This document shows positions 1 through 32,028 of a DNA stretch of 32,028 nucleotides, one piece after another. The position numbers and the translations under genes were made by a program. The number at the start of each line of letters is the position of its first letter. The first letter of the stretch is position 1. The notes below the pieces were generated by a model that was not told the DNA's origin, ran no database searches, and was given only the letters and a program-made list of their open reading frames with translations. The stretch comes from Bugula neritina (lineage: Eukaryota; Bryozoa; Gymnolaemata; Cheilostomatida; Bugulidae): positions 1-32,028 of the forward strand of contig CAXIUT010000297.1 in the NCBI GenBank assembly GCA_964035545.1, written 5' to 3'.

Positions 1-81
1 CCCAACCCCAACCCCAACCCCAACCCCAACCCCAACCCCAACCCCAACCCCAACCCCAACCCCAACCCCAACCCCAACCCC
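1..81. repeat. Left telomere, C4A2 repeat
   Basis: Perfect CCCCAA units on the + strand, in the orientation expected for the left end of a linear ciliate chromosome. Non-repeat sequence starts at 82 and the first gene starts 71 bp further in, so there is almost no subtelomeric spacer. C4A2 is the repeat known from Tetrahymena, Glaucoma and partly Paramecium. Confidence 0.95.
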
Positions 82-5894: not shown

Positions 5895-5929
5895 TAGTTA
5901 TATTTTATTGACCAAAATAATCAATAATA

Positions 5930-8525: not shown

Positions 8526-8588
8526 AGTATGATGTATATGTTGTATGATATATAAGTTGTAAACTATTTATAGCTGCAATAATATTAA

Positions 8589-9800: not shown

Positions 9801-9903
9801 AAGAACTAAATGATTTGTATTTATAGTTAAAACTAAATAATAATTGAGCATATCAAATGAATTTATATTTATATGATTAATTGCATTAAATTTAGATATC
9901 TAT

Positions 9904-10634
9904 TCACAAAAACAAAAATAACCAACCTTTTGACTCAATCTTATAGCAAACATAAATATCAGTATCAAAAAAATAAACAAAACTAGCAACCTCATAAACG
10001 GATGGTATTTGTTGGACTAGTTAGACAAAAGTAGAATCATAATTGGAATCATTAAAAATGGTCGAAAGGACTTATGCTTATAATTATAACTATGGTAGGT
10101 TGTTGTTTTTAGGGAATGTTGCTTTGGCTGGGATTATTCCCTTCTTTAGCTAGATTAATATTGTTATTTTGATGATGAATGGGGGGTTTATGATTAGTCA
10201 TTTGGGAAATTAGGTTAAAAAGTTTTTAGGATTTATTAGTAAAAATCATTAAAGTAATCTTCTTTTGTTTTAAAAACCATAGTATTATCTTCAAATTAGT
10301 ATCTTTTCATATATTTAGTGTTAAAAAATCTACTCTTCCTTTCAATTTCTTCAATTACTATGGCTTTTGACTACTATACAATCTCACATATTGTCTGTCT
10401 CTCATGGTATATCTGTAATTTATTTACTATTTCTAGTTAATCTTTATAAAAAAGTTATTCCTCAACAATATTGGCCTCTTCTAATATCTATTATTATTGT
10501 TCTAAGTTTTAATATTTTTTTATCTCCCATTAGGTAGCTTTTGAATCCTTCAGCTACTGCTGAAATAGTCTAAAAAATATCGAAAGAATGATAGTTTATT
10601 CTTGGTGTATTTTATGATATTATTGCTAGAACAT
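9904..10634 (-). CDS. Coiled-coil protein with small C-terminal domain, 236 aa, one 20-nt intron
   Basis: Minus-strand exons 10634-10091 and 10070-9904 joined across a 20-nt intron (10071-10090). The N-terminal ~130 residues are Glu/Lys-rich coiled coil, followed by a Ser/Glu/His-rich disordered linker. The C-terminal exon encodes a compact segment reading VELVQQIPSVYEVASFVYFF then DTDIYVCYKIESKGW. The start is uncertain: ATG 10634 is the first Met in this frame, and an upstream ATG at 10707 is in another frame. A plus-strand hydrophobic ORF here is rejected as antisense. Function unknown. Confidence 0.65.
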
Positions 10635-10785
10635 AAATATGTATTAATTTGTTTTAAGAGATTTCGATATTGATATTTTTTTGTTTGAAAATAGATTCTA
10701 ACTCCATTTTATAACTAAGTTTTTACAATAAGATTTAAAAAGTTCTATTTGCCTATTAAAATATAAGTTTTTTAAATCAAAGTGA

Positions 10786-13759
10786 ATGACTGACAGCATA
10801 AAGATAGCTGTTAGAGTTCGTCCCTTCAATGAAAAGGAAAGGAATGAGCAGACTAAGAACATCATTGAAATGGAAGGTCAAGAGTTAAGACTGAGAAATC
10901 CTGATACAAACTAAAAGAAAAAGTTTGGATTTCATCGATGTTATTATAGCACAGATGATGCGATGGGACATGCTCCAATTGACAATACATTTTTATTTAA
11001 TGATATAGGTAAAGAGGTGTTAAATCAAATTTATCAAGGTTACAATTCTACGATCTTTGCTTATGGACAGACGGGTGCAGGGAAGTCATACTCTATTGAA
11101 GGATATGAAGAAAAAGGTATCCTTCAGATGTGTCTTTAAGATATTTATCATCGTAAAAAACCATAGAATAGCAAAAATGGTCTAGCTACATCTGTCAGAA
11201 TAACATATCTGTAAATCTACAACTAAAAACTAAGAGATCTGGTTGATCCAAGATAAAAATAAATCAAAATTCAACAAATAGGTACAGCCATTCATATATC
11301 TAATGTGACTCCTGTCCTAGCATAAACCTATGAAGAAGTAGAACAAATATTCAAAGATGGTAAAAAAGTTAGAGTGGTTGGTGCTCACGCTATGAATAAA
11401 AATAGTTCTAGAAGTCATGCTGTCTTCACTATCTACTATAAGGAAACTGGAGGGGGTAAGATGATTGATTCAAAATTCAATATTGTGGATTTGGCTGGTT
11501 CAGAAAGACAGTCGAAAACTGGAGCTACTGGAGTTAGACTTGAAGAAGCTAATAATATCAATAAAAGTTTGACAAATTTGGGTATAGTTATTGAACAATT
11601 GGCTATTAATTGTCAAAAGAAAAGTACTAACTTTGTTCCCTATAGAAATTCTACTCTTACTCATATTCTTTCTGAATCACTTTGTGGAAACAGTAAAACT
11701 TTCATGATAGCTGCTGTATCTCCAGCTGATTCTAACTATGAATAGACTCTTAGTACTTTAAGATTTGCTCAAAGAGCTTCTATGATTACAACCAATTCTA
11801 AGAAGAATGTTCAAGCTAAATAGGGATACAATAAATAACTTTTATAGGAAATATAGAGGTTGAAGAAGCAACTTGAAGGTGCTCAAGGCCAAGTTATTCA
11901 TACTCATTCGGTAGCGTCGAATATATTACAGTTGAAAAGCAGGCTGAGGAAATGGATAGTCGAATAACTCAAATGATGCAGGAATTGGACCAAAATAAAT
12001 CAGAAAAATAAAGTTTGGATTTTAAACTTAAATAGTTAGAAGAAGAAAGAAAAAATCTTGATATTGAAAAAAGTAAAAAAAAATGCTTGATCCAGAGGAA
12101 GAGCAAAGAGCGAAAGATATTGATCAAGAGATTAACAAATTAAAAGAAGAAATATAAAATACAAAGAAAAGTAGAGAGGAATTATAAAAGGAGTTACAAG
12201 ATGAAAAAACTAAGAAGTAAGATTTATAGGCCAAAATAAAGTAGCAGCAAGGAGCTATGAGTGAGTAACAAAAGAGAGCAGCTGAATTGAATGCAAGAAT
12301 TATGATAATGATGAGTGAGTTAGACAAAAACAAAACTGACAAAGAGGCATTATAGAAGGAATTACAGGAATAAAAATTACGTAAAGAATAGATGTAGAAA
12401 TTCAAGAAGAAGATGCTTGAAGAAGCTGGTTTATCAAATCAATCGAATATCAATTAGAGAAAATTTCCATATATTATGAATGTTTCAGAAGATCCAACTT
12501 TGCTAGGTATGCTTCTCTATGACATAAAGGATGGATAGACTAAAATAGGTACAAAAGATGCATAAGAAAATCATATTAAATTGAATGCTCTTGGTATTAT
12601 GCCTAGACATTGTTCCTTTTACAATTAGAAAAGTAAGATATTTATCTAGCCTAATCCAGAAGCAAAGATCTTTGTTAATGGTGCAATAACAAATAAAAAA
12701 GTATAACTTCAACATCTTGATAGAGTAACTTTTGGTCATGCTAACAATTTCAAGTTGATTATTCCTGGTAAGGGAGCAGTTGATAATTTGAGAATGTCTT
12801 CAACTGCTATTGGCAAGTATGGTTAGTACATCGACGACAAGTTGGCTGCTAATACTATTGAAGCAAAGAGCATGAAACAATTTTTGAGTGAACTTCAGCA
12901 GAGATTAGACAAGCATATATTTGCCAAGTTTTTATAGAAATTCAAATCGTTCTTTGAAGATGTAGATTAGATGAATGAATATACTTTCCACAGATATAAA
13001 AAGTTTCCTCTTAAATCAAAGAATCTTCATTTCAGAATAAATGTGGTTATCGATATTTAGAACTATATGAAAGGTATTCCAGAAATTATCGTTTTGTGTT
13101 AGCATAAATAAAACAAAGAAGTTCAGTTTGTTTGGACTGAATAGAAGTTTCAAAATAGATTGGCAGAAATGCAGGAATGGTACTAGGGCGAGGGTAAAGG
13201 CAATGATGGATTATCATATTATGAGTTTGATCCTTGGTTTTAGGCTTCTGATACTTTTATTAAAGAAAAAGAACAACTTTAGACTTTGAAAACTAAAGAA
13301 ATAATATAATTTTTTAATAAGAAACAACAAAATAATGCAGAAGGTTATAAAAAGATCCTTGCTTAACAAAAATCTATTCTAGCTGAATTGAATGGAATGG
13401 GTCATAATGAAGGTTTGGTTGAAGATTATGCTGATTTTTATTTCAGAAATTTTCCCTGCACTGATAGTAGTAAAAAGAAGATATAAACTATGAGAAAGAA
13501 CGAATAAGTTCATAAGAAAATTCAAAGATTTATGTAATGTTGCGCTTAGGTCCAGAAATGCAACATGGATAATAAATTTTATAATTAGCAAAAAGACAAA
13601 TACTCCAAAGGAAAACAAAACGGTGCTAATGATAAATCCAACGCAGCAGGAGATGAGACTTTGGTTCAAGAAAACGTGTGGCTTAATTCAAAATTGGACT
13701 AGTTACAAGATGAGTTAAAGAGGAAGACTCAGATGATAAACAAGCTAAGAAAGCAATGA
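10786..13759 (+). CDS. Kinesin-3 family motor with FHA domain, about 973 aa
   Basis: Plus-end-directed microtubule motor of the Unc104/KIF1 type. The N-terminal motor starts KIAVRVRPF at residue 5, with P-loop GQTGAGKS (94-101), switch I NKNSSRSHAVF (about 203-213), switch II DLAGSER (235-241) and the neck motif NYEETLSTLRFAQRA, where the second Glu is TAG. A coiled coil follows, then a typical kinesin-3 FHA domain (PTLLGMLLYDIKDGETKIG ... MPRHCSF ... VNGAITNKK) and a tail with DPWF. Two frame changes occur in the coiled coil. The second fits a 23-nt GT...AG intron at 12073-12095. The first, near 11911-11939, fits no 20-nt intron; a 29-nt one is the best candidate. Stop TGA 13757-13759. Likely cargo or intraciliary transport. 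Confidence 0.9.
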
Positions 13760-13802
13760 TCTGAGATAATTAATAATAATAATAATTAAATTAATATAAT
13801 AT

Positions 13803-14681
13803 TCAGGGATCGTAGAGAGATGAATCCATTTTAGTTCTATGAAAGCTATTGACTCTTATTTTGAATTGTTTGTCTTTTCTGGTTTTTAGCATTTTATCAT
13901 CTGGTGATTATTATTTTAATTTTTAAAGACTTCTTTGTCTGATGCTTTTATTCATGAAGTTTTTTCCTGAAGTCAGGCACATAGTTTATCTTAGATTCTA
14001 AAGGGTTTGTCTGATTTATACACTCTGTTTTTGCACTAGATCATTTTGTATATTTTTTAGTTTTATTAACATCTTTTATGAATCTACTTGTCTTTGTTTT
14101 ATTTGTTAGTTTCTATCTTTTTATATTCTTTTTAGATGTGCTAGTAATGCTATTTATTGATGTTTTTGTAATACTTATTTTCTTTTCCTTAATCTATCTG
14201 CTATCTCCATTGTCTTATTTTGCTTCTATTTCTGATTGATTTTATTTGCTAAATTTTTTAAATGTTCAGCTTGAGAGTAACTTCTCTGCTTTACTAAACT
14301 CTTCTATTTAGCCTTCATATCCAGTACTCTTTTCGATGGCTTCAAGTATCCCTACAAATATTTATTTATTCTCTATTACTATTCCTACATTTCTCTTAGA
14401 TGTCTGGCTTTTAACTTCTATATTGAATTCATTGCAGCACTTTAATATTTGTCCATATAGTCATTCCATGCTGAATTAAATTAGAGTAATCTTGATTGTT
14501 GGAGGGAGTTGACCGAATGGACTTTTACTTTTTGTTGGCTGAGGAGATTTGTTTTGTATCTTCTCATTTATTTATCTTTTATTTATAGTATTTTTTGATG
14601 TGCTTTCTAGGCTTCAAGGTAGCAACTTGATTCTTAACATTTTTTACGATAATCTTAAAGTAATTTAAGAAATTATACCAT
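13803..14681 (-). CDS. Coiled-coil protein, 292 aa or longer; 5' end beside a telomere array
   Basis: Minus-strand frame from ATG 14681 to TGA (plus 13803-13805). The start reads MVEFLKLLEDYRKKCEE then SSCYLEAEKAH, a good N-terminal-looking helix pair; the rest is a basic, Lys/Glu/Gln-rich coiled coil. Only 38 bp separate the ATG from an internal G4T2 array, leaving almost no room for a promoter. If the array and one copy of a flanking TA are removed, this frame fuses with the truncated EF-hand ORF at 14801-14977 to give one 363-codon ORF. The protein may therefore really start at 14977. Its stop is 43 bp from the kinesin stop. Confidence 0.75.
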
Positions 14682-14719
14682 ATTAAGATTAGATGAATTT
14701 CTACTTTATATATTTGTTA

Positions 14720-14800
14720 GGGGTTGGGGTTGGGGTTGGGGTTGGGGTTGGGGTTGGGGTTGGGGTTGGGGTTGGGGTTGGGGTTGGGGTTGGGGTTGGG
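14720..14800. repeat. Internal telomeric array, G4T2, 81 bp
   Basis: Perfect GGGGTT units on the + strand, the orientation of a right-hand telomere, but followed by 17 kb of unique sequence. Left flank ends in TTGTTA, right flank starts TATAAC, so a TA is present on both sides. Length is 81 bp, the same as the visible left telomere. It separates the coiled-coil gene at 13803-14681 from a truncated EF-hand ORF. Confidence 0.95.
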
Positions 14801-14977
14801 TATAACTCTTGATATTGCCTCTTCACTGACTTGATTTATTTTGCATGTCGATTGTACCAGGCGAATGGCTTCAGATAGACGGATGCTTCCTTGTTTGCGG
14901 TGATCGATTTTGTTGAACTATTATAATAAGTTTTGCATCTATATTTTTGCATTTACTCCCTATTATCGCATTGTCAT
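14801..14977 (-). pseudogene. Truncated EF-hand ORF running into the telomere array (59 codons)
   Basis: Minus-strand ORF from ATG 14977, just downstream of an in-frame TGA, with no stop before the array at 14800. It reads LLEEFNKIDHRKQGSIRLSE, a degenerate EF-hand with loop D-H-R-K-Q-G-S-I-R-L-S-E, flanked by helices. Read into the array it would give Pro-Asn repeats, which is not credible. It is best seen as the 5' part of a gene interrupted by the array; removing 83 bp joins it in frame to the gene at 13803-14681. Whether an intact copy exists in the cell cannot be told from this window. Confidence 0.6.
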
Positions 14978-15137
14978 TAGTTATAAAATTATTCATTGAT
15001 ACTTATCATAATATATGCTATACTCATTTATATCTATGCTATCTAGATAAATATATTGATATTGATTGAGTTTGATCTAGTTTAGTTTTAGTAGAAGAAA
15101 GGAGTTGTTTTGTGATGATGTTAAAAACTGATAAAAA

Positions 15138-15218
15138 CGACGCCTGAGGGATTCGAACCCTCGCACCTTACGGTAATAACTTAGCAGGCTATCGCCTTAA
15201 CCACTCGGCCAAAGCGTC
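15138..15218 (-). tRNA. tRNA-Ser (anticodon GCU)
   Basis: Full cloverleaf on the minus strand. The acceptor stem GACGCTT pairs with AGGCGTC, followed by a G discriminator. The A box reads TGGCCGAGTGG and the B box GGTTCGAATCC. The anticodon loop is CTGCTAA, giving GCU (reads AGC/AGU). A long class-II variable arm with an ACC/GGT stem is typical of serine tRNA. No intron and no encoded CCA. A run of five T follows directly (plus 15133-15137), a standard RNA polymerase III terminator. Confidence 0.95.
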
Positions 15219-15329
15219 ATGTTCATCTACTTTCTATCAATGGCTTCAAGTACAAAAATACTATCGACCATTTCCAATCAAATGCTATCACTATCATATC
15301 AAATCATTTTATAATATAAAATATATCAA

Positions 15330-15416
15330 GGGGTTGGGGGTTGGGGTTGGGGTTGGGGTTGGGGTTGGGGTTGGGGTTGGGGGTTGGGGGGGTTGGGGTT
15401 GGGGTTGGGGTTGGGG
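15330..15416. repeat. Internal telomeric array, imperfect G4T2, 87 bp
   Basis: Mostly GGGGTT on the + strand, but unlike the other arrays it has longer G runs: a G5 unit near the left end and a G5 and a G7 unit near 15380-15392. Left flank ends ATATATCAA, right flank starts AAAAGAGG. It lies 111 bp beyond the tRNA and directly at the 5' end of an ORF that has no start codon of its own. Confidence 0.93.
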
Positions 15417-16159
15417 AAAAGAGGATCAACAGTGTGATTCCTAACATAAAATAAAATTTATTCAATTCAACTCAAACGTTTGTTGATGCATTATTTAACT
15501 TAGATTCTTAGTTTATACAATCAACTGCTACTCCTGCATTACAACGAGTGATACTACCTGAAATAGAACATTTGAAAAGCAAAAATACATCGATTAGTTT
15601 TGTATAATAGAAAATAGGATAGGATGGCAAAAGTTAATAAGTTGGCAAAAAGGTGCTTTATGTATCGCCTTATGTTATTTTTGGACAAACTATGGAGGAA
15701 AGATTGAAATTGTAAAATCCATGGGAAAGTACATACAGATTATTGGCATTCAATCGATTTATCAATTACGATAAAGATGAGAAATTATCTTTTAGCAAAT
15801 TGTCTAAAGACCACATCTATGGATTTAACTGTTTCTTTTAGGCATTCAAATAAATATAGATATCTTCTGGAGGGTCAAATAAAACTAAATATCCCCAGAA
15901 GGAAATGGTGGTCACATTTGAAACTAATGCATAGAATCATTAGTTTTATGTATCAGATTTTAACTTTGTTCTTAAATCGCCATAATCACTGAATAATCTC
16001 AATGATTGTATTCTATATAAATATTGTATGGATTGGCAATATATATATTCAATATCAAATGTTATCTGTTCATTGAGCAATTATATTTATTAGAAGAAGC
16101 ATGTCTTGGTATTTATTTCGATAGTCACCTGCCATACAGCAACGAGGTATCAAAGTTGA
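15417..16159 (+). CDS. Unknown protein, 5' end cut by telomere array (partial)
   Basis: Open frame of 247 codons that begins inside or at the array and ends at TGA 16157-16159. The first internal Met is far downstream, so the N-terminus is missing. The middle reads like a folded protein (LYVSPYVIFGQTMEERL, then ENPWESTYRLLAFNRF). Removing the 87-bp array and two duplicated A residues joins it in frame to ATG 15219 or ATG 15240 (MASSTKILSTISNQ), giving 283 or 276 codons. The last ~50 residues are hydrophobic and less convincing; the gene may end earlier through an unrecognised intron, because the next ATG lies only 9 bp beyond its stop. Family not recognised. Confidence 0.6.
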
Positions 16160-16168
16160 TAACTTGCC

Positions 16169-16852
16169 ATGTAAATGCCTATTCATCTAGATGCAGCTAA
16201 ACCTAAAATTAGTTTATCTTGGGGAATGAATTAGAAAACTGATAGTCGACCTCCCAGCACATCCACTAACTATATCAGAGATACCATTCCTGCTACCCTA
16301 AATAGAGAACCTGCACATGATCCTCAAATGAATCATGTTAAGGTGCTGACTGATACTTCTGATGAGGAGCAGGAGGAGTTGATTAAGTTACTAAAATCAC
16401 AGAATGATAGAAAATTGTAACAAGAAATGTTAGAACTATATAGTAAAAATAGAGCTAGAAGCAATTCGATCAAAAGTGGCATGTAGATGAAGAATCAAAG
16501 AGAGTAAAAGGGAAGTCAACGTTTTTAAGCAGATAAAAGAATAAGATTTTTATAGAATAGTTTACTTCCTTAATGCAAAAGAGATAGTATGTCGACTATA
16601 TTCGATTATAATCTCAATAAAGAAGTGCCGTTGTAGTAATCTCGAGTTAGTGGTAAATCAGTGCTTCATAACAAAGTATACCAATGATTATTAAAGAAAA
16701 ACGATTCGACTGTTCCAATGGGAGATGGCTATAATTCATTTATTCCTTAAACTGACTATAAGAAAGATCTGAATCAGAAGTTGAGATAGATCTATGATTA
16801 CGATGATAGTTATAATCGAAGGATGGAGAGGAGTAATATTCGTTTGGGTTGA
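16169..16852 (+). CDS. Basic, disordered protein, about 220 aa, one 21-nt intron
   Basis: ATG 16169, with an alternative ATG at 16175 in the same frame. Exon 1 runs to 16675, a 21-nt GT...AG intron (16676-16696) removes an in-frame TGA, and exon 2 ends at TGA 16850-16852. The protein is rich in Ser, Asn, Arg and Lys with a short acidic patch (SDEEQEELIKLL). It has no catalytic motif and looks disordered. It converges on the EF-hand gene with 48 bp between stops. Function unknown. Confidence 0.72.
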
Positions 16853-16900
16853 AATTTAACTTTATCTATTATGATAAATAAAATATTTTATCTAAAAGCA

Positions 16901-17554
16901 TCAATAAACAGCTTTTATCATGACTTCATAAAATTCTTGGAATGTAATATGTTTGTTTTTGCTGTTGCCTGCACGTTAAAGCATCAATCTCATCATTTCT
17001 TAATCTTACTATTCCTCCAATAACTTGGTCATTTCTTTGAGATCGTGCATATCAATGTAACCTTTATTGGTTCTATCGTATTTTTTGAAGATATGTTGGA
17101 TTCTTTTGGCAGGTTCTTTCTTTTTGTTTCTGTAATCCATAGCTTTCATAAATTCAGTAAATGAAATTCCACCTGTTTATTATAAATCGTATTAGGCAAT
17201 GATCTCATAAATAGTCTTTTTTGTTGCTTAGTAGCCGTTTTAATTCAAAAACACCTTTAGGTCGTTGGGAAGTAGAACTCCTATTTTGGTTGAATCGTAA
17301 TAGTCAAAAACTTATTTAAGTGCTATAACATCTTATTATGTTATTTCGCTGGTAACGTAGTGTCTGGGATCGAATTATCTGAGATCTTTTCTTTTAAAAC
17401 GGATATCATAATAACCTGAATTTCTTTCCATCCAATCTTCTTTACTCTCATGACTGTATCCATGACGAGAACTAGGTGATTTCCTATCAGGACTCCTGCT
17501 ATTTGAGACTTTTACGGAAGAAGTCTTCATTTTGCTTTCTTTCACTCTGCTCAT
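16901..17554 (-). CDS. Centrin/calmodulin-like protein with four EF-hands, 217 aa
   Basis: Minus-strand single-exon ORF from ATG 17554 to TGA (plus 16901-16903). A basic, Ser-rich N-terminal extension of ~70 residues precedes four EF-hand units. Their loops start YDSTKIGVLLPND, YDLEETGGISFTEF, YDRTNKGYIDMHDL and a degenerate GNSKNKHITFQEF. The order and the FMKAM and FYEVM helix ends resemble centrins. Loops 1 and 4 lack several acidic ligands, so perhaps only loops 2 and 3 bind calcium. Centrins act at basal bodies and contractile fibres, fitting a peritrich, but assignment as a true centrin rather than another EF-hand protein is inference. Confidence 0.82.
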
Positions 17555-17591
17555 GTAAGATATATTTAAAGTTTAATCATATTAATATTTA

Positions 17592-19095
<1,504 letters not shown>

Positions 19096-19210
19096 TACAG
19101 CATTAACATAATAGTTTAATTATTGTCTATTATTATAGTCTATTAATCTCATCGAAATCATAACTAATAATCATTAAAATCATATTTAATAATATTTTAT
19201 GACAAAATAA

Positions 19211-20428
19211 TCAATCAATGATCGTAACCTCATCTCCTGAGTAATTTACAGACACACAAAAGTAGATCTTCTACTTCTTTATCTTCTAAAACTTTAAATT
19301 ATACACTTTTGGATCCTAATTTCTTTGGAAGATCAGTTCTCCTGTCTGAGGAATGGCTGTCATCGTCAATGTATCATTCTAGTTGAAATACCATGAAGTA
19401 TATTGTTAGTTGACTGTTGAATCGCTTCCCCAACTGTATCCATCATAAGATATTTGAACTGTTCCATGACTTGACTGATCAAATTTATATCCAAAACTTT
19501 ATGCTTGACTTTTATAGGCTATTCCGGCTGCTACCCATCCTTTTATACCGTTCATTTTCAATTTGATCGTTCTTTTTTTGTTACCGATACTAGGTTCAAT
19601 AAGAGAAAGTAAAGTATATTAGTTTTACGGGAGATTGGGCATTTTTAGATTTTTAGGGTCAGTTATTTTGAGATCATGATGGGAAAGAGTGGTTGAATAT
19701 TTATAAGATTTGATTGAATTTTCTGACGAAGGATTGAACATCATGAGTATTTCTTATTATTCCCAATTCTTTTTGAGAGTTAAAGATTTTTATTTGAAAT
19801 CTTTGTAGATGGTAGCTACTTAACTTTTGACATAGTTAACTAAATTTTTTCCAGTCATTTTATCTTATAAAGACATACTTGAATATTAATCATTATCTGC
19901 AACAAACACTTCAAACCGAATAATAAAATTAAACAAACTTTGCTGTAATCTATTAATCTATCGATGATCTCCTTTACTATCATGATGATTTCTATGTTTT
20001 AGAGTGATTATGTTTGACATGGTAGTATAAAATTATTGAAAATATTTACCATTTAGCAACTATCTTGTTTTTTGGAAATAGTTAGTAATTGATGTTTGAA
20101 GGGCTGCCTAGATTTACTTGAATTGATTTCTGGCTATTCCTCTGATCAGGTTTATATGATGGTCGATAAATGCAGCTGTGGTGACGTCGTTGAGTAGTGT
20201 TATGCAACTTTGATGGATTTGTAGTAGTACCATTTTAAGGGATTTTACTTATAGATCTTATTTTTGTTTATTGTTTGTTTATGGGAGACATAAAGAACAA
20301 ATGAAACCTCTAGGCTGGGCCTCTTACTTAGTTACTATCATATTGGCTATCTATGAGGTATGTCTATCGCATTCGCATGCTAATTTTATGAATGAGTTCA
20401 GTATTCCTCCACGAATATCTTGGTGCAT
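19211..20428 (-). CDS. TRIM-like zinc-binding / coiled-coil / SPRY protein, 405 aa
   Basis: Minus-strand single ORF, ATG 20428 to TGA (plus 19211-19213). The N-terminus has a possible zinc site, Cys20-x2-His23 and Cys44-x2-Cys47, in the arrangement often seen in ciliate B-box-like proteins. A helical coiled-coil region covers about 55-220. The C-terminal ~140 residues form a SPRY/B30.2-type domain: IKLKMNGIKGWVAAGIAYK, SSHGTVQISYDGYSW, NENDTLTM, then GELIFQ. An in-frame TGA lies just upstream of ATG 20428. A shorter start at 20233 would lose the zinc site. It could act in ubiquitin pathways, but no RING is present. Confidence 0.8.
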
Positions 20429-20530
20429 TTATTATTCAAAAGAAATAAAATATCATCAATATTAACTATTTTATATCTTGTTATATATATATGAATAAAC
20501 TATCAACTTAAATAATTTAATATTGTTTCA

Positions 20531-20623
20531 GGGGTTGGGGTTGGGGTTGGGGTTGGGGTTGGGGTTGGGGTTGGGGTTGGGGTTGGGGTTGGGGTTGGGG
20601 TTGGGGTTGGGGTTGGGGTTGGG
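20531..20623. repeat. Internal telomeric array, G4T2, 93 bp
   Basis: Perfect GGGGTT units on the + strand. Left flank ends TGTTTCA, right flank starts AGCTTG. It lies 102 bp upstream of the SPRY gene start and exactly at the final codon of the minus-strand gene to its right. Confidence 0.95.
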
Positions 20624-21689
20624 AGCTTGTAATAATAGCTGATTAGTTGGAACAAATAACCTCACCTTGCACTTGATTGCCACTCGTAGCTGTAAATAAC
20701 TAAGGTGTTAAAGGATAGCATGATGTTTCTTGTTCTTTATTTTAAAAAGCATCAATATAACATCTATTCGATTTGCTATTGGTTTAAAATGGTGTGAGAA
20801 GTGAGAGTTTTATTGTATCGAATCTTACTTTTTTGAATTATAAATAATTAAGAGTATATCGTTCTTTTATTTGATATACGATCATAAGTGAAGTATAGTT
20901 GTTTTAGTAGGTATTATTGCCAAAAATAATAACACTATTTTTGTTATTTATTTTAGCTATCTAGATGATAGTTAGTTGATCATGAAAATGAATGATATCT
21001 ATTTATTTTTGGATTTAACTTGCTCCTTTCTAACTGCTAGTATAAAAAAGAGTTTATATCCAATATACCTTGATAGGTTTCTTTTTGTTAAGATATGAAG
21101 GATATACTAATATATCTGGATCAAAAGATGCTAAACTCATTTTGTATTAAGACGGAAAGGTCTAATGATATTCTGAGGTTATTTTTAGTTACATTGATTC
21201 TATGTTGATGATGCCGAAGTAATACACCATATTAATTTTTGTTTGGCATCCTAATTTGAGGTATATTTTGTTGTTTGAAATGATTGGATAAATCATTTTA
21301 TTGTAATATTTTGAATATTATTTTGTTTTATCAGTTTAGCCTATTTTAATCATCAGTATTTTAGCATTAATTAAGGTTTCTTTTTTTGATAAACTATCCT
21401 CGATCTTTTCTTTCCCAAAAATATAGATATTTGTATTAGTAAAGATAAAAATTAATTTTCGAAGTTCTTCTATTCTTAAGATATATTTGATTTATTTTTA
21501 TTAAAATATAACTTTCATCTCATGATATTTTTAACCATTTTTTATATCATAACACAAAATAGTTCCATTTCTTTTGAAGAGTATGATAATTTAGAGATCA
21601 ATATTGATTTTAACAGTACTGATGAAGACAATATTTTATGATGGTTAATTTTGTATGATAGCTGGTTGATCTATTAGATAAAATGCCAT
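20624..21689 (-). CDS. Beta-rich protein of unknown function, 355 codons, stop codon displaced by array
   Basis: Minus-strand ORF from ATG 21689 with no TGA before the array. It reads [15 protein letters not shown], then repeated hydrophobic beta-strand patterns such as [34 protein letters not shown] and [13 protein letters not shown], suggesting a propeller-like fold, though I cannot name the family. Codon 355 is AGC at 20627-20625; the next base is T and then the array. Deleting the array and one duplicated A makes the next codon TGA, an exact natural stop. With the array it would read Pro-Gln repeats. Head-to-head with the next gene, 59 bp between ATGs. Confidence 0.75.
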
Positions 21690-21748
21690 GCTAATATTAT
21701 AGATCAACATCTATTATAGAAAATTACTTCGAAAAGAATTTAAACAAT

Positions 21749-23790
21749 ATGAAAATCAAATCTCCTCAAACGCATCTAACTCATCGTTCTATTGGCTAAT
21801 TTGACAGTCAAACATGTCGGTCTCCTAAGGGAAAGACTGTGATCAATAGTAAAATAGCAAAGACATCTAAATCTAAAAAATAAAATTAGAATAAGAAATG
21901 TCCACAGAGTGAGGATAAAAAAACTAAAAGGAAATAAAAGAAGAAAAATATTGATCTAGATAATACTCTAATAATCAACTAAAATAGCAAAAATAATAGT
22001 AGGTAATTGTCAAGTACTACAAAACTGAAAACAAGAAATTCATAGAAGACATTTAGGCCTTCATCGAAACAAGAACAAAGTAGATATAAAGCGGGGTAGT
22101 GGATATCAGATCTTGTTTTTGAGAGTAGAATGACGGAATAGTCTAAAAGTAAAAATAAAAAAAATAGAAAAAAAATGCCTGAAGATAAAATATAGTTAAC
22201 TAAACCTAATTAGTAGTATCTTTTTATTGGCTAGGATTTCTATTTTATGAATAGTTTTTGTCCAACTAAAAGGTTCCTTAATTCTTTAGAAATAATTGTC
22301 TCAATTCAGATAGTAAGTTTATTACTCAAGATAAAAAAGATAAAAGTAAAGTGTCAGTTAAAAAGAGTACTAATATTTTCATAGAAGCAAGAAAATAAAT
22401 AGAAGATAAAATTTATAATAACAAAGCTACTATAATTCAAAAATGGTGGAAAAAAATATATCAAGCTAACCATTACGACCATACTTAGAAGATTACTTTC
22501 GAAGAGAGTGAGTAGGAGTTCAGAAGTCCTTTAGATATTGATCAACTTAATCAATCTCCTATTCCAGATAAGTCATCAGGGCATGAAGAGTCAATCATAG
22601 CTAGTTTTAATTCAGTTTAACAGGTAGAAGAAAGAGCTCCAAGGAAGGTATAATTCACTAAATAAAATATTTGCACCCTACTGAATCATGAATACAAGAT
22701 GCCGACAGCTTCATAAGTAAATTCTGACTAAAATGACGAAATTATGGGAAATTATCAACAATTTAAGCAAAAGTAAGTCGAAGATACATAATATATACTG
22801 TAGAATGAAGAAAGTGTCTAAAAGATTCGATAGGCAAGTATCTATTAAACATCTAACGACCCGTATAAGATCCTTAGAGGTATTTTTGAGACTATATAGA
22901 ATTTTAATAAGCGACAAGAATAAAATAGCAAATATAAAATAGAATATCTTATCAGAAGGGACATTTTAAACAACTTAATAACTATCAATAAAAAATAAAT
23001 ATTAGTACAAGTATACTAAGTATTCATAGCTTTTTGATTAAATTCTTTAACTTTTACCTTCAAAATCACAAAGAATAGTTTGTCAATTTGATCAATATGC
23101 CCTATGGATATAGCATACCATCAAGACTAAGATTTTTAGCTGGGTAGCCTTTGCCTGAAGAATAAGAATAGGATGAAGATGGAGTGATATTTGGTCTTAA
23201 TCAAATCATACCAAATTAATACTTATAGGAGTACTATAGCCATGTGGAAAAGAAATAGCCAAATAAGAACAATAGTTTCTTTAAAGCTAATTTATAACTA
23301 TAGAGAATGCATAATAAGGCAGTTCTTGACTACTTCAACTAACAATTAAATACTTTTAGACCTTATAAATAAATATGTATAATTGATTATATTCAGAAGG
23401 AGTACCTTATCCTTGGAACTATTCATACAAAGCTTTAACATTTTACTTTGTAGCAGAATAAAACATCGCATAGATTTTTTAAAAGATATAAATCAATATA
23501 TTAAAGAGTTGTTCTCTTTTTTGTGGTATTCTTCTACCAAATGATCTATATCCTAACATCTAGTCATCCAATTTAATGGAATTTATGGAGAAATACTAGA
23601 CTAGTAGTCATGGAATACTTTTATAGCACAATTAAGATAAATAGATGAAGTTGATAAATGAATAGATCAAAAACAACAATTTTAGTTTAATAACTAAACC
23701 CATACTGGAGTCATTCTTGATATTTCCAGTAATATTATTGATCTCATACTTATGGAAGCTGCATATGAAGTCGATACTGTCATTTATTGA
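21749..23790 (+). CDS. IQ-motif protein with conserved C-terminal domain, 653 aa, four 20-nt introns
   Basis: Exons 21749-22297, 22318-22879, 22900-23376, 23397-23709, 23730-23790; all four introns are 20-nt GT...AG and each changes the frame by +2. The N-terminal ~180 residues are basic and disordered. An IQ-like calmodulin-binding motif, KATIIQKWWKKIYQ, lies at about 218-231, followed by an acidic linker and coiled coil. The C-terminal ~200 residues contain LDYFNEQLNTFRPY followed by EGVPYPW and end DNIIDLILMEAAYEVDTVIY. From memory this resembles a widespread ciliate family related to DUF4378, but that is not checked. Unspliced readings of the last intron give a false transmembrane tail. 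Stop is 34 bp from the convergent protease stop. Confidence 0.82.
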
Positions 23791-23824
23791 TATGTTTATT
23801 TTTATATTTAACTTTTTAAAAATA

Positions 23825-24748
<924 letters not shown>

Positions 24749-24770
24749 TATAATTATAATCTCTTTTAAT

Positions 24771-25714
24771 ATGATTAAAACCCTCCAATAAGAATTTTAT
24801 GCCTATCTCATACGTAACGAATCGCCTTAGCAACAAAAAGCCAAATAAATAAATTCTTAGAGAATCTACCGTTTACTATAAGATAAATTCATCGATGAAT
24901 ACGATGAATAAAGCATTTTCGCTCAATAATTTTTCAAAACAAATCTAAAAAAAATATCATAGATACTAATGCTAGCAGTATATCATAAAAATCCTTCATT
25001 TATTAAAATAGACCAACTAATTGTGCTTATAGGCATATTCCAACATATATTTTATGACACTTCTTTGAACCTTCCTCAACTAGTTATCAAAAAAACTAAT
25101 AGTTATCTTCATTTTTTGCTATTTTCACAAAATATATAAACTATGATAAATATATTTGATGATAGTATCAATAGTAACTCAATAGCACACTTCTATCAAT
25201 TTATCTACAAGTCAGCATTTATCCATAGAATGAATACCCTTATATCTATGTATGGACTTACTATGAATAACCAGTAGTTGCCTTTGTACTTGCTGCAGTG
25301 TATAATTGAACAGAAATAGGGTAATTTTTAGCAATATGATTGCAAGGTGACTTCAGAATGGTTGGTTTTGAGTTTAGTATATTTCGTGTTATCAATCAAA
25401 GCAGATATCTACAAACAAAAACCTGTACTATCTTTAATTCTCAATAAATACAAAGAACAAAAGCCAGAATGGAATCTTAGAGAGATAAATGGAGACGAAT
25501 TATGTCATTTTTATAACAGTACAGTTATAAGATTGATCCAAAAGTTGGACAGTAAAGAGGTATAGCGTTTGGTGGATGAGATAAAGACGGACATCGATGT
25601 GAGTAGTCAATTCATAAGTAAATATTTATATATTTAGTTAGTCCTATTCAGAATGAGAATAATACTGTTTTGGATAACATTGCATTTTCGTTTTCATCGT
25701 CTTGGGAAGTATGA
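24771..25714 (+). CDS. Helical protein of unknown function, 307 aa, one 20-nt intron
   Basis: Open frame from ATG 24771; a 20-nt intron (25618-25637) replaces a drifting frame by a short 3' exon ending at TGA 25712-25714. The protein is mostly alpha-helical by eye, of mixed composition and without low complexity (for example HFYQFIYKSAFIHRMNTLI and EWLVLSLVYFVLSIKADIY). It has one or two hydrophobic stretches but no clear signal peptide. I do not recognise the family. It shares a 22-bp divergent spacer with the protease gene and ends 22 bp before the convergent kinase stop. Confidence 0.78.
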
Positions 25715-25736
25715 TTGCATATAAGACTACAAATTA

Positions 25737-27362
25737 TCAAATGACTGTTTTTGATGGGTTGTTGCGCATGCCTTTACCTCCCAGTCCCTTTGTTGTTACC
25801 TGTAGATACTACAATCTACCCATTCTGAGTTAGATATCGATGAGTTGTTTTTAATTTAGTTGGTAAAATTTCTTTTAGAAATCGATTCCTTCGCTTACTA
25901 CTCCTATCAATCCATCAATAGATACTGTTGAATATATTTTTCCTCTAAAACAAAAACCTAAAGTAACGACCTAAAATAGTTTATTTATATTCTATTATGA
26001 TTGTTCAGTTTAAATATTTTTACCTAAAACAACTAATCTCATGTCGATTGATTATTCTGACATGAGTTATTGATATAAAATAGTTTAATTTCCTTATAAT
26101 TTTTATGTACAATATTTACTTTGTTCCCATATTTTAACATCTTCTCTTTTTTGCATTTATATTTATTTTTAATAAAAGGATTGCTAGACTAATTTATTTT
26201 AGTTATCATTTGATAGATACTACTAATTTTATCATTATCTAGTTAAAAATATCTTTAAAATCTATTCAAATTCTTTTTACTACATGCGTGTTCATTACAG
26301 TAATAGTAGAATAAAGTTGTAGTGGGATGTTAATGTTTTAATTGGCTAATATATAATCTTCGAACATAGTTGCCATTTTATATTTGATTTACTATTGATT
26401 TTATACTCTAGCTAATTGATTCCGAGTAAAGGACAATAATCGATTTAGGTTTTATTATTTGATAGAGTTAGTAGAGCATCAGTTCCCCTAGACCTGTTGT
26501 GTAACCCATTGTATTGATAATCAACTTTTTGAAATATAATTTTTATCTGTAGTAATTGTAAAGATATTTTACTGCTTTCAGGTATGTGTCAAGATGGTTG
26601 AGAGGAGTGAATTATCCTATCCATATCTTTTTATTTATGTCTTAGCCATATAAACTAATGCATCCTTCTAGGAGATAGTTTCTACCGATATCGCAATCCA
26701 ACAAAATACATCCTTTGTTGACCAAGTAGTCACTTAAAGTGCTTTTACCTGTATTTTTACTTCCTAGAAGCATTACTTATCCATCATTTGTGATACAATC
26801 AGGCAGCTAAGTCCATGGATTATTGCATTCTTAAAGCGTACATAGATTCGATGCAATTATTAAGGTTTACTCATTGAATTTAACTTGTTTCAGTAGTTCT
26901 AATAGAGATTAATCGCCAATTTGTGTTAATTTGACGCATAGTGATGGGATGTTAACTTTTTCTGATGATTGTTTATTGATTAAAAAAATAAACTGTTATG
27001 ATGTATTGATTTTACTAATTTGTTTTCCATTGATTTATAATTTGTCTTGATCAAGGACAGTTTATATTTTAGATATTGTTATGATTATGATTGATTTTGA
27101 GAGGTTTGTTATAGGATACTATTTTTAGATATTTGTTGTTTTTTAGTTTTATTTGACGGGCGTCTTAGGGGTTTAATTACTATTGGTTGTTTTATTGAAT
27201 TTATTATTGGTCTATTTATTATGGTTATTCAGACGGAGATATCAGGTCGACTAATTACTATTGGAAACTATATTGTTGTTTGTTTTTATTCTTTTTATTG
27301 AATGGTATTTACTATTTTTTTATCTTTTTGTTTTTTGATTTTTTTGGCTTTGTGGAACTCAT
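25737..27362 (-). CDS. Grc3/NOL9-type polynucleotide 5'-kinase
   Basis: RNA 5'-OH kinase of the Clp1/Grc3 family, known for rRNA processing. Walker A is VMLLGSKNTGKST, followed by CILLDCDIGRN, then WIGEFTPLNHLDTYL and LIINTMGYTTGLGELMLYEL, in the family order. The C-terminus reads RGKIYSTVSIDGLIGVVSEG. A 20-nt intron at 26119-26138 joins the last two frames. The N-terminal region before the kinase (TVLDQDKLEINGKQISKIN) looks like a beta domain. The 5' exons are unresolved: an acidic/Lys-rich ORF starts at ATG 27362, but reaching the kinase frame needs introns that are not 20 nt (for example 23 + 17 nt). Stop at plus 25737-25739. Confidence 0.85.
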
Positions 27363-27546
27363 CAACAAAGGATTTATCAATTTATAAAATTATACTAAAT
27401 AAATAAATAGTTATTTAGTTAATCAAAATATTGTAGATTAATTCTAAGCTCTGTTTATTAAATAACATTAAATTTCTACAACAGTATTCTCAAAAATATT
27501 TATTATTTATAGTATACCGCATTAGCAATATCATAATTAATTTGGC
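27363..27546. promoter_or_regulatory. AT-rich divergent spacer
   Basis: 184 bp between divergent starts at 27362 (minus) and 27547 (plus). Very AT-rich; no recognisable motif seen. Confidence 0.35.
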
Positions 27547-28346
27547 ATGAACAAACTTCTTCTACTCATTTTGGTCATTACCTTCTTCCGTAAAGCATAG
27601 CCTAGTATCATCCTTATTCCAGTTACCTTTGAATAGTAGACTGAATAACCTTAAGTCGAGACAAACACATCGGCTAACCAAGACAATGAAGGTAATAAAT
27701 CTTTTATAAAGAAACTGAAGTTTAGGAAACAACCAATTAACCTGAAACAGAAAATCCTTAAACTGAAGGCCAAATTTCTACTTTGAATGAAGTTAATGGG
27801 ACCTAAGAGGAAAATAGCAATGGATCGGAAAAAATGAATGATCAAAATGAAACAGATGATTCTAATGATAGCAATGGCTCAACAGAAGAGGAGGCATCTG
27901 AATCATTAAGTGAATCATCTAAAACTAGTGAAAGTTCTAAGAAAGTACATCATTGTTCAAAAAAACATCACAAAAAAAGAGTAAACAAAAGAAGACAAGT
28001 GTTACCATTCAAGACAAATGAAAGAATGTATTTGTCTACTGATATCCATTTCACCAAAAAGAACTTGATTTATCGGAAAATAAACCTTGAAAACCCACAG
28101 ATGATAACACTAACTTTCACAAGTCGTACTTTTGGATTAAACATCATCAACAGAAGGTTCAAATCTATCCTAATACTCAAATTAAACCAACAAAAAGCAA
28201 AGATAAGACTAAATTGGGGAATATCAAAACAAACAGTTACTTTTGAGGGAGTTAAAGGAAAAAACATAATAAGTTTCAAACTAAAAAGCAAGGCATATTA
28301 TCCAGGAACAAGTTACAGCATTCTGAATAATTTTACTATAAGTTGA
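27547..28346 (+). CDS. Secreted acidic Ser/Glu-rich protein, 259 aa, one 20-nt intron
   Basis: Starts with a clear signal peptide (MNKLLLLILVITFFRKAEPS). Exon 1 is 27547-27691, a 20-nt intron follows (27692-27711), and exon 2 ends at TGA 28344-28346. After the signal come ~100 residues dominated by Glu, Thr, Asn and Ser with many potential glycosylation sites, then a His/Lys/Arg-rich patch (VHHCSKKHHKKRVNKRR) that may be a processing site, then ~120 residues of beta-rich, basic sequence. No membrane anchor is visible. It may be an extracellular, lorica/stalk or secretory-granule protein; that is a guess from composition. Confidence 0.78.
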
Positions 28347-28462
28347 AAACATGATTTTTTTGCATTATGAAATAATAATCAGAGTTGCATTATTATCAGA
28401 TTCCAAGATTTAATAGTTCAACGTGTGATATATTATCTTTTAATATTTTTCTCAACAAAGCA

Positions 28463-30082
28463 ATGGCTCAATAGGATTGGAGTACAACTGTTATAGTTCT
28501 TATAATGACTGTTCTAACCCTAAACTACTTCGTACTACCCGACTCAGAACATCAAGTCTTTGACATCAGTTCTAAACATATCAAGTATCATTCTAATTGG
28601 ACTCGATCTGTTGATGACTTACCTGATGTGTAGCAATTGCAGGCAGCCTATAGGTTACCAGGTATTAAATGTTTTGATATGTCACTTTCTATGTCTAGTC
28701 TTAACTTCTCTCAAATCAAACCACTTCTACCTGTTAGATTTGATCAGTATTGTAATTTGAAGTTGAATTTTGCTAATAATCCAATAGGTAGTGTAGGAGC
28801 TGATCATATTTTATCATTGATTCCTAATGATGTTAAATCGCTTGATATATCGTTTGATTCAATTGAGGCTGGTGATAATTTTGGAGCTATTCTTGCTAAA
28901 AGACTCAATAATCTAAACTCACTTAAAAAATTAAAATTATCTCTGATTATGGCAGTTAAAAATGATAAAGTACTTGATGATTATCTTCGATTTGGTCGTC
29001 TTAACTAAAAACTATAAAATTATTCTTTAGTTTTAATAGGAAATAGTCTAACCAATTAGTCAATTCCTTACTTGAAAACTCATCTAGAAAGAGCTAATCT
29101 CAAGTAATTATAATTGAATTTTTATGCTAATAAACTAGGAGTATAAGGTGCTTAAATAGTAGCTGATGCTATATCAACTCAAAAATAACTTAAATCTCTT
29201 AATCTTGATTTATACTTCAATAATATCACATAAAATGGAACATAAATGATAGCTAATGCTATTTCTAAAATAAATAATCCATAATTGAAAACTTTCCATC
29301 TTAATCTTGATTTCAATTATATTAAAAACGATGGATGTAAAGCTTTGGCTGGTATGTTCTAAAAAATGAGTCATCTTAATTCTTTGAGTCTAGGTGTTGC
29401 ATCTAAAAACTTTGGATTTCTTGGATTTAAATATCTAGTTAAAGGACTTAGTCATCTAGTCAATCTTTAAGAATTTTCATTCAAATGTGGAGTCAATCGA
29501 GTTGGACCAGGAGGAGCATAAATAACGAGAGATCTAATCAACAAAATGCCTCATCTCAAAAAATTAAGTATCAATTTCTATTAAAATTATGTAGGAGACG
29601 AAGGTTTGATTGAACTAACTAAGGCAGTATCTTCACTTGAGCATCTGAACTCTTTATATTTGAATTATGGATTTAATGATGCTAAGGGCTATGGACTTGT
29701 GAAGTGTTTGTAGTTGTTGGCTAAGAGACAATATTAGGAGGTATATCTTGGATTTTCTAGTAATTAGTTCCAGGATAGTGAGGTCAATTTGGTAAGAGAT
29801 TAGTTGAGATAAATGGTTAGAAAAACAAAAACATTTGAATTATAGTTTATGGAAACAGCTATTTCAAAGAAAAAGGCAGCATAACTTGAAAGAATCTTTG
29901 CATCTAAACCAAGTGGCTCTCAATCCAGAATCAACGTGAACTCTATTATATCCGATGAGCAAGAAGCCAAATACAGCTAGAAGGCTTAGGACAGAGAAGA
30001 GAAGTTAAAAGAGTTGGCAGATAAAGATGCATTGGGTGAAAGGGAGCAAGGTTCTTCTGGTAAGGTGGACAGTTAGTTGTGA
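28463..30082 (+). CDS. Membrane-anchored leucine-rich-repeat protein (ribonuclease-inhibitor type), 539 aa
   Basis: Single-exon ORF ATG 28463 to TGA 30080-30082. A short cytosolic N-terminus precedes a hydrophobic segment at about 9-26 (TVIVLIMTVLTLNYFVL), either a signal anchor or an uncleaved signal. Residues ~70-440 carry ribonuclease-inhibitor-like LRRs of ~28 residues with LxxLxLxxxxxN and G(A/C)xxIAxA units, for example LKELELNFYANKLGVEGAE and LKSLNLDLYFNNITENGTEM. The C-terminal ~100 residues are charged and helical. LRR proteins of this kind usually bind proteins. It lies 60 bp upstream of the kinase gene on the same strand. Confidence 0.85.
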
Positions 30083-30142
30083 TATGATGGATAATTATGT
30101 GAAAATAATTAGTTTTCGAACTATATTTTATTATTAATCTGT

Positions 30143-31654
30143 ATGTAGAAGTACAAGACGATAAAGACATTGGGAGATGGTGCATTTGGGACGGTATATA
30201 AGGCGACGAACATAAAGACGGGTGAGGTGGTGGCTATAAAGAAGATGAAGCAGAAATACAAGAACTGGAATGAGTGTATATAATTGCGAGAGGTGAAATC
30301 TTTGAGAAAGATGAATCATAGCAATATAATAAAGATGAAGTAGGTGTTGTTGGTGGCAGAAGAGTTGTACATGGTTTTTGAGTACTTGGACTACAATTTA
30401 TATGAAGTCTATTCCAAGATGAAAGAGGAAAACAAACACTTCACTTAAAAATAAATCAAGTATTTACTCTTACAAATAGAAATATTGTCTTCCAAATTGC
30501 TAGTGGACTTGCTAGTATGCACAAACATGGATTTTTTCATCGAGACATGAAACCTTAAAATCTACTCATCTACAACAATGTCGTTAAAGTATGCGATCTA
30601 GGCCTCGCAAGATAAATACGGTCGAGACCACCTTTCACTGACTATGTTTCCACCAGATGGTAAACTTGTATCTACTCAGGTATAGAGCTCCAGAACTTCT
30701 ACTCAGGTCCACCAACTATAACTCACCCGTCGATATCTTCGCACTAGGAGCCATCATGGCAGAACTCTACACTCAGTGTCCTTTGTTTCCAGGAACTAAC
30801 TAAATGGATCAGCTCAATAAAATCGTTAAAATATTGGGAACACCCAAGAAGTAAGATTGGCCTTAGGGATATAAATTGGCACAAGCCAAAGGATACTATT
30901 TTGCATAAGAAAAAGGAGTAAATTTGGGAGAAATTATACCAAATGCTTCAATGTAGGCAATAGATTTGATTGAATCTATGTTGAAGTATTCTTCTAGAAA
31001 AAGGCCAACAGCTGCATAGTACTAGTTTCGTAAAGTAGAATGTTGAAGCATGATTATTTCAAAGGAGTAACTATAAACGTTGGATAATCTAGTGGTAAAG
31101 AACCTGTTTTTGAAGAGAAGCCTCAGGGAGTAAAACTCGATACAAGTAAAGAAGACAAAAATATCAATATATTTAGAGCTACTAAATAAAAATTCAAACA
31201 AACTAGAAAGCATGATGCAATGGATTCTAATGTATTCAAACAACCTGATGTGGTCGAGAACAATCGATCAGGAGCAATGGAAGGAGTCAATGACGATATT
31301 GATTCAATTTTACAATATTTGTAGGATAAAAACAAAAAGAAAGATACTAAAAAGTTTCCAGTTATCAATACTAAAGATAAATTTTATAAACCTCCTTAGA
31401 AAAAATAGTTAAGATAGAGTAAAACTTAACTTAAGCATGGATAATACAAGTACCATGATAAGGATTAATGGAAAAATATAAAGAATAATCCTTATATGGA
31501 GTAAAAAGAAAGAATAAATCGATAGTAGAATAGTTCATATAAAAAGAAAATGATCGGTAACCCCTACAACCCACTGGGATCACTAAATGCCATGCCTCGA
31601 ATAGCAAGAAAGAGATGGCACAAAATAAGTTTTCATATAGTTTTCAGCCAGTGA
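30143..31654 (+). CDS. RCK/MAK/ICK-type ciliary protein kinase, about 483 aa, three 20-nt introns
   Basis: CMGC kinase of the RCK group, which controls cilium length and intraflagellar transport. Gly loop GDGAFG (11-16), Lys33, [22 protein letters not shown] (126-135), activation segment [23 protein letters not shown] with the TDY phosphorylation motif at 159-161, and DWPEGY. The magnesium motif is DLG (145-147), not DFG. Introns: 30460-30479, 30660-30679, 31019-31038, each 20 nt. The tail is basic and disordered. The last ~35 residues are uncertain: after 31560 a second frame stays open to TGA 31793-31795 and looks equally good (for example SYPSSKHTKTSNLGLGLAY), but no 20-nt intron connects them. 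Confidence 0.92.
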
Positions 31655-31840
31655 TGGTTCCTAGCTATCCATCGAGCAAACACACAAAAACATCGAACTT
31701 AGGATTGGGATTGGCATATATGCCTCTTCCTAAGGCGAACTCTCTTTTGAAGAAAGACCTTCTTCCATTAAAATGTGATATATGAATAGTTAGTTTTATT
31801 CTTTTACTAAAAATAATAAATATAAAACAATATTAATCAA

Positions 31841-31909
31841 GGGGTTGGGGTTGGGGTTGGGGTTGGGGTTGGGGTTGGGGTTGGGGTTGGGGTTGGGGTT
31901 GGGGTTGGG
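31841..31909. repeat. Penultimate telomeric array, G4T2, 69 bp
   Basis: Perfect GGGGTT units on the + strand. It is followed by only 50 bp of unique sequence (31910-31959) and then by the terminal array. It looks like an alternative right-end telomere addition site. Confidence 0.95.
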
Positions 31910-31959: not shown

Positions 31960-32028
31960 GGGGTTGGGGTTGGGGTTGGGGTTGGGGTTGGGGTTGGGGT
32001 TGGGGTTGGGGTTGGGGTTGGGGTTGGG
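31960..32028. repeat. Right telomere, G4T2, 69 bp to window end
   Basis: Perfect GGGGTT units running to the last base. Together with the C4A2 array at base 1 this suggests that the window is an entire chromosome assembly of about 32 kb. Confidence 0.95.

What the first reader, a model, noticed from the sequence alone, without database searches (positions are those of the whole stretch)
14720..31909. Four internal telomere arrays, all in the same orientation as the right chromosome end
G4T2 arrays at 14720-14800, 15330-15416, 20531-20623 and 31841-31909 sit inside a contig that already has telomeres at both ends. All read GGGGTT on the + strand, as a right end would, and none is C4A2 or a head-to-head fusion. 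Simple end-to-end fusion or concatenation of finished chromosomes would give G4T2 followed by C4A2. The pattern fits nested molecules that share the left end and stop at different points, merged by an assembler. Alternatively telomeric DNA is really inserted at these sites.
Basis: partly seen in the sequence, partly recalled or inferred. Interest (0 to 1): 0.9.

Follow-up and report, generated by a model that had tools for sequence, protein, structure and literature searches.

The report
Assembler-pasted ends of ciliate chromosomes
The four telomere stretches inside this sequence are most likely tails of shorter chromosome copies of a contaminating, probably peritrich, ciliate that the assembly program pasted over the real DNA, so they mark alternative chromosome ends and are not inserted telomeres.

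Summary
The arrays are real letters in the contig and the coordinates are right. The window is one complete 32,028-b scaffold of a 215.8-Mb assembly whose chromosome lengths match the published bryozoan Bugula neritina genome (hifiasm, YaHS). The scaffold itself is a ciliate chromosome: G4T2 caps at both ends, UAA and UAG read as glutamate as in peritrichs. Across the assembly, clean internal array exits are 312 plus and 36 minus relative to the printed strand. Of 38 measured scaffolds under 54 kb with listed exits, 36 are plus only; of 18 scaffolds with a listed minus exit, 16 are 54 kb or longer. At three sign switches that I read, a 200-N scaffold join lay there. Biology cannot know which strand an assembler prints, so the shared orientation comes from the assembler. 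Internal arrays end in the same phase (..TTGGG) as chromosome tips, and at one site in a 22-bp minisatellite the array replaces an equal length of DNA. Best reading: alternative telomere-addition sites, known in other ciliates, whose capped read ends were overlaid on longer molecules. Raw reads were not available; two small contigs (C249, C93) do not fit the simplest form. The biology is known in kind; the unflagged contaminant and the artefact signature are the useful results.

The parts
1..81 (-). left telomeric cap, C4A2 on +, 13.5 repeats, outer end CCCAAC
14720..14800 (+). internal array 1, 13.5 perfect repeats, ends ..TTGGG; read as an overlaid right-type cap
14801..14977 (-). open frame (code 30, ATG) that runs into array 1; EF-hand-like by eye, Pfam found no family
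15330..15416 (+). internal array 2, 14.7 imperfect repeats, ends ..TTGGGG before AAAAG (last G may be flank)
20531..20623 (+). internal array 3, 15.5 perfect repeats, ends ..TTGGG
31841..31909 (+). internal array 4, 11.5 perfect repeats, ends ..TTGGG; 50 b before the right cap
31960..32028 (+). right telomeric cap, 11.5 repeats, outer end ..TTGGG
10786..11976 (+). kinesin motor gene used for the genetic-code test (UAR = Glu)

Best explanation
The window is one macronuclear chromosome of an unnamed, probably peritrich, ciliate that was sequenced with a bryozoan colony. Copies of the chromosome end at different AT-rich places, each capped with about 60-110 b of G4T2 (known biology in other ciliates; inferred here). 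Some reads therefore end in a cap while longer copies run on. So internal arrays of a contig share one sign relative to the printed strand, end in the phase of a molecular tip, and hide real sequence. Shown: the sign bias tied to the printed strand, sign switches at scaffold joins, the tip phase, equal-length replacement at one site in another scaffold. Inferred: the read-level events, the step inside the assembler, and that the four window arrays follow the same rule.
For: Clean internal exits over the assembly: 185 plus and 21 minus (reversed-pattern control 7 and 2), 98 and 7 (control 5 and 2), 29 and 8, together 312 of 348 plus. Of 38 measured scaffolds under 54 kb with listed exits, 36 are plus only; 16 of the 18 scaffolds with a listed minus exit are 54 kb or longer. 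Sign switches in C35, C20 and C97 lie at 200-N joins, 3 of 3 read. Twelve of 12 terminal caps end GGG; 20 internal arrays end GGG (17) or GGGG (3). In C35 a 22-bp minisatellite keeps its phase across the array, 57 of 57 bases at shift 0, next best 33 of 57. A toy one-sided layout gives arrays of one sign only and no change of contig length. UAR = Glu at three invariant columns and G4T2 caps make it a ciliate.
Against: No raw reads were examined. C249 (21 kb) has two internal minus arrays, none plus and no gap in the bases read (1-120 and 4900-21123). C93 (16 kb) has a 27-b minus array near its left end beside three plus exits; 261-16278 were not read. The layout rule that I recall for hifiasm would print the opposite sign. 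The other mixed scaffolds were not read through to their switch. Equal-length replacement rests on one site (chance 1 in 22); a second minisatellite (C11) did not discriminate and fitted neither model exactly. No array-free copy of the window was found, in a search of 13500-22000 only.
Confidence: 0.88

Rival explanations
1. True interstitial telomeric DNA: the arrays sit in the chromosome, put there by telomerase at breaks or by capture of telomeric fragments.
For: The letters are in a finished contig, and no array-free copy was found in the assembly (13500-22000 searched).
Against: Insertions would fall in both orientations relative to an arbitrary printed strand; 312 of 348 clean exits are plus. 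The sign switches at scaffold joins. The array in C35 does not shift the minisatellite phase as an added 76 b would. No flanking duplication longer than 10 b at the four window sites.
Confidence: 0.04
2. Chimeric molecules or contigs: capped ends of one molecule were joined, in the library or by the assembler, to unrelated DNA, so the right flank is a different locus.
For: An array followed by ordinary sequence looks like a join, and for the four window sites the continuity of left and right flank was not shown directly.
Against: In C35 both flanks are the same minisatellite in the same phase. Arrays close behind one another near contig ends (window 31841 and 31960; C20 at 47446 and 47559) look like neighbouring ends of one locus. 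Ligation in the library has no reason to follow the printed strand.
Confidence: 0.04
3. Molecules really share a fixed left end and vary only on the right, so the orientation is biological.
For: All internal arrays of the window are right-type.
Against: The printed strand is arbitrary, so a fixed left end would leave about half of the contigs with minus arrays only. Of 38 measured scaffolds under 54 kb with listed exits, 36 have plus only, one minus only (C249) and one both (C93).
Confidence: 0.03

Closest known systems
Alternative telomere addition sites (ATAS) of the Blepharisma stoltei macronuclear genome (PMC9942806; section 5 read)
   Same: Capped molecules end at many internal positions of the macronuclear contigs; seen there with HiFi reads, most mapped reads at a site carrying no telomere.
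   Different: Another ciliate class and telomere repeat; shown there from mapped reads. Here only the assembled contig was seen, with the caps printed inside it.
Variable telomere addition in Paramecium bursaria minichromosomes (PMC7702705; passages)
   Same: Oligohymenophorean ciliate, short multi-gene chromosomes, highly variable addition sites, about 30% of them in coding regions; the authors map capped reads to an assembled long contig.
   Different: The paper works from reads with caps; a single-sign overlay is not in the passages I saw.
Oxytricha chromosome isoforms seen in single reads (PMC6937825; search listing only)
   Same: One locus gives several capped molecules (by its title).
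   Different: Gene-sized chromosomes with another repeat (recalled); isoforms read directly.
Bugula neritina genome note tzBugNeri2.1 (PMC11480708; sections 5 and 11 and passages)
   Same: Chromosome lengths match this assembly; hifiasm, purge_dups, YaHS and manual curation were used.
   Different: Ciliate, Ciliophora, protist, peritrich and epibiont do not occur in its main text; it says repetitive sequences could not be assigned. It gives 320 scaffolds and 216.01 Mb; our copy has 295 and 215.85 Mb.

Membership tests
Alternative telomere addition sites of ciliate macronuclear chromosomes | reads capped at an internal position coexist with reads that cross it without telomere | not testable with these tools
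Alternative telomere addition sites of ciliate macronuclear chromosomes | same repeat and same tip phase as the chromosome ends | tested here: met
   12 of 12 terminal caps end GGG; 17 of 20 internal arrays end GGG and 3 GGGG
Alternative telomere addition sites of ciliate macronuclear chromosomes | sites spread over many chromosomes | tested here: met
   348 clean exits counted; the 237 listed lie in 141 scaffolds
Alternative telomere addition sites of ciliate macronuclear chromosomes | small telomere-capped chromosomes of a ciliate | tested here: met
   caps at both ends of the window; 38 of 40 left ends fetched begin with C4A2; reassigned stop codons
Interstitial telomeric sequence (real insertion) | orientation independent of the printed strand | tested here: not met
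   312 plus and 36 minus
Interstitial telomeric sequence (real insertion) | adds its length to the locus | tested here: not met
   one site, C35 minisatellite; not testable at the four window sites
Fixed breakage motif as at Tetrahymena Cbs (recalled) | conserved motif close to the cap | tested here: not met
   52 flanks (internal and terminal mixed): AT-rich, no base above 0.58 at any of the last 12 positions; a motif further away was not tested
Peritrich ciliates | UAA and UAG both read as glutamate | tested here: met
   one gene: TAA at two columns with Glu in 120 of 120 relatives each, TAG at one with 118 of 118; code of Peritrichia from PMC10553269 passages
Peritrich ciliates | rRNA or multigene placement in Peritrichia | not tested
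   rRNA search not answered

The most novel reading that the evidence does not exclude
A peritrich macronucleus carries dense alternative chromosome ends on both sides of its genes, so each locus exists as a family of overlapping capped molecules. Long-read assemblies record one side of these ends as single-sign, equal-length overlays, which can be mined from public assemblies as a map of alternative ends in uncultured ciliates; and much of the roughly 15.6 Mb of unplaced sequence in a published animal reference, with the genes annotated on it, is ciliate.
Probability: 0.55. Interest if true: 0.5.

Novelty: new member of a known kind. Interest (0 to 1): 0.33.

Why it matters
It explains a striking pattern without new biology and gives a simple test (sign against printed strand, tip phase, equal-length replacement) that separates overlaid read ends from real internal telomeres in long-read assemblies of ciliates or of other organisms that trim their chromosomes. 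It also indicates that much of the unplaced sequence of a published bryozoan genome is a ciliate, which matters for its gene set, and it offers a partial macronuclear genome of a probable peritrich.

Tried and rejected
Head-to-head fusion or concatenated telomeres: no G4T2 followed directly by C4A2 in the stretches read inside a component; a cap, 200 N and a cap of the other sign were seen only at scaffold joins (C20, C97).

An array-free copy of the window: searched with 13500-22000 only; apart from itself 8 short matches at 66-85% identity, so none found, and array 4 was not covered.

Target-site duplication: no direct repeat longer than 10 b within 300 b on either side of the four arrays.

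The large chromosomes as the germline of the same ciliate: considered because their TTTGGGG telomere resembles a Tetrahymena germline variant that I recall; dropped because the searched part of the window has no near-identical match there and the lengths match B. neritina.

Glutamine code (table 6), my first translation: replaced by glutamate after the column test.

A coding frame across array 1 as a second replacement test: nothing recognisable continues behind the array and Pfam found no family in the frame before it, so undecided.

A tRNA next to an array in C14, suspected by eye: ARAGORN found none in that 10-kb stretch.
Full report
What is there. The window has G4T2 arrays at 14720-14800, 15330-15416, 20531-20623 and 31841-31909 on the + strand, a C4A2 cap at 1-81 and a G4T2 cap at 31960-32028. 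Array 2 is imperfect. No direct repeat longer than 10 b lies within 300 b on both sides of any internal array. The window is the whole of scaffold C281 in an assembly of 215,847,546 b and 295 scaffolds.

Where it comes from. C5 has 17,720,077 b and C6 16,049,455 b, and telomere-like hits reach 35.638 Mb on C1, 15.810 Mb on C7 and 13.348 Mb on C8. This matches Table 3 of the Bugula neritina note (17.72, 16.05, 35.64, 15.81, 13.35 Mb), which used hifiasm 0.19.8, purge_dups and YaHS (PMC11480708; sections 5 and 11 and passages). Its main text does not contain ciliate, Ciliophora, protist, peritrich or epibiont. Its nine chromosomes sum to 200.25 Mb, which leaves about 15.6 Mb here in some 286 scaffolds. 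Internal G4T2 exits were listed in 141 of them; not every scaffold was tested.

The organism. With standard stops only 2 frames of 150 codons or more (stop to stop) exist in the window. In the kinesin gene 10786-11976, TAA at residues 143 and 147 lies in columns with Glu in 120 of 120 relatives each and TAG at 320 in one with Glu in 118 of 118. Over all covered columns TAR averages 0.44 Glu (13 columns), GAR 0.34 (23), CAR 0.15 Glu and 0.10 Gln (18); with the eight best-scoring relatives TAR averages 0.49 Glu, GAR 0.54 Glu and CAR 0.41 Gln. Several TAR columns are not conserved and say nothing. One gene was tested. UAR = Glu is reported for Peritrichia (PMC10553269 passages). I therefore call it a probable peritrich; rRNA was not obtained.

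The orientation test. A cap that belongs to a molecule has no knowledge of the strand an assembler prints. I counted clean exits, meaning an array followed by non-repeat sequence, so that chromosome tips are not counted: 185 plus and 21 minus (reversed-pattern control 7 and 2), 98 and 7 (control 5 and 2), 29 and 8 (its control, 392 and 201, is not informative, since the reversed pattern fits cap starts). Together 312 of 348 are plus. Some GGG-T-G exits may be errors within arrays. Searches (403 and 85, control 76 and 43; 33 and 16, control 115 and 50) mix in repeat errors and host telomeres and are not used. None of the listed rows lies in C1-C9. Those rows cover 237 of the 348 exits (one search lists 100 of 206, 100 of 105, all 37) and 141 scaffolds: 123 plus only, 7 minus only, 11 mixed. 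All 18 scaffolds with a listed minus exit were measured: 16 have 54-418 kb. Of the 123 plus-only scaffolds 43 were measured: 36 have 12-54 kb and 7 are longer. Of all 38 measured scaffolds under 54 kb, 36 are thus plus only.

Minus arrays outside these classes. One search also lists a minus exit in C55, an 85-kb scaffold that one search counts as plus only; it is a minus array of about 50 b. Searches show that the minus array of C210 (77 kb) directly follows a stretch of N. C202 (10 kb) has a minus run of three repeats that does not look like a cap, and C79 begins with host-type repeats that turn into C4A2. These were not followed further.

Scaffold joins. In C35, four minus arrays and a right cap are followed by 200 N, then by two plus arrays and a right cap. 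That suggested that blocks of minus arrays are flipped components. I therefore looked between the plus and minus blocks of C20 and C97 and found 200 N there, with a cap on each side. Three of three switches that I read lie at joins; the other mixed scaffolds were not read through. Against the simplest form stand C249, with two minus arrays, none plus and no gap in 1-120 and 4900-21123 (121-4899 not read), and C93, with a 27-b minus array at 174 beside plus exits.

The tip phase. Twelve of 12 terminal caps in the fetched stretches of seven scaffolds end ..TTGGG. Of 20 internal arrays there, 17 end GGG and 3 GGGG; for two of the 17 the script ran two bases into the flank, and one search shows the GGG end. 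Of 40 further left ends, 34 start CCCAA, 3 CCAA, 1 CCCCAA and 2 have no cap. An array broken at random would end in any of six phases. The internal arrays therefore end where a sequenced molecule ended.

Replacement. In the C35 component (own orientation) the array at 18897-18973 lies in a 22-bp minisatellite. Units before and after it are in the same phase when the array is counted as occupying genomic positions: downstream 57 of 57 bases match at shift 0, next best 33 of 57. An added 76 b would shift the phase by 10. So the array stands in place of an equal length of DNA. The 29-bp minisatellite in C11 moves by one base and fits neither model exactly. If the window arrays follow the same rule, about 330 b of real sequence is hidden under them (inference).

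Mechanism. Alternative telomere addition is established in Blepharisma (PMC9942806 section 5) and Paramecium bursaria (PMC7702705 passages). A toy model of 60 simulated loci per rule gave 24 left-type and 0 right-type internal caps with a prefix rule, 0 and 14 with a suffix rule, and no change in length. The prefix rule is what I recall of miniasm and hifiasm, and it predicts the sign opposite to the one seen; I could not resolve this. The single sign, not its direction, is the argument. The cap flanks are AT-rich without a motif close to the cap (52 flanks).

Verdict. The shared orientation is an assembly effect. The biology behind it is most likely the known alternative-end behaviour of ciliate macronuclear chromosomes, here in a probable peritrich contaminant. 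Searches for a description of such overlays (listings only) showed none by title, which does not prove that there is none. In checking I added, dropped a tRNA claim that one search did not bear out, and set the confidence at 0.88 in view of the unread mixed scaffolds.

Noticed in passing
scaffolds other than C1-C9 of the assembly; window = C281: Much of the roughly 15.6 Mb of unplaced sequence of a published bryozoan assembly looks like ciliate chromosomes (141 scaffolds with listed internal G4T2 exits); the genome note's main text does not mention ciliates.
   Followed up: partly
window 10786-11976: UAA and UAG encode glutamate in the kinesin gene, which points to a peritrich.
   Followed up: yes
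L001 (end of C5): The host chromosomes carry TTTGGGG-type telomeric repeats with some variants.
   Followed up: no
window 15137-15219 (-): tRNA-Ser (GCT) gene 110 b before array 2.
   Followed up: no
C93:174-200 (L053): A short minus array of about 27 b lies near the left end of a 16-kb scaffold whose other listed exits are plus; unexplained.
   Followed up: partly
C249 (L054, L073-L075): A 21-kb scaffold, gap-free in the bases read, has only minus internal arrays; perhaps printed on the other strand.
   Followed up: partly
52 cap flanks in fetched loci: The bases next to the caps are AT-rich, with no motif in the last 12 positions.
   Followed up: partly
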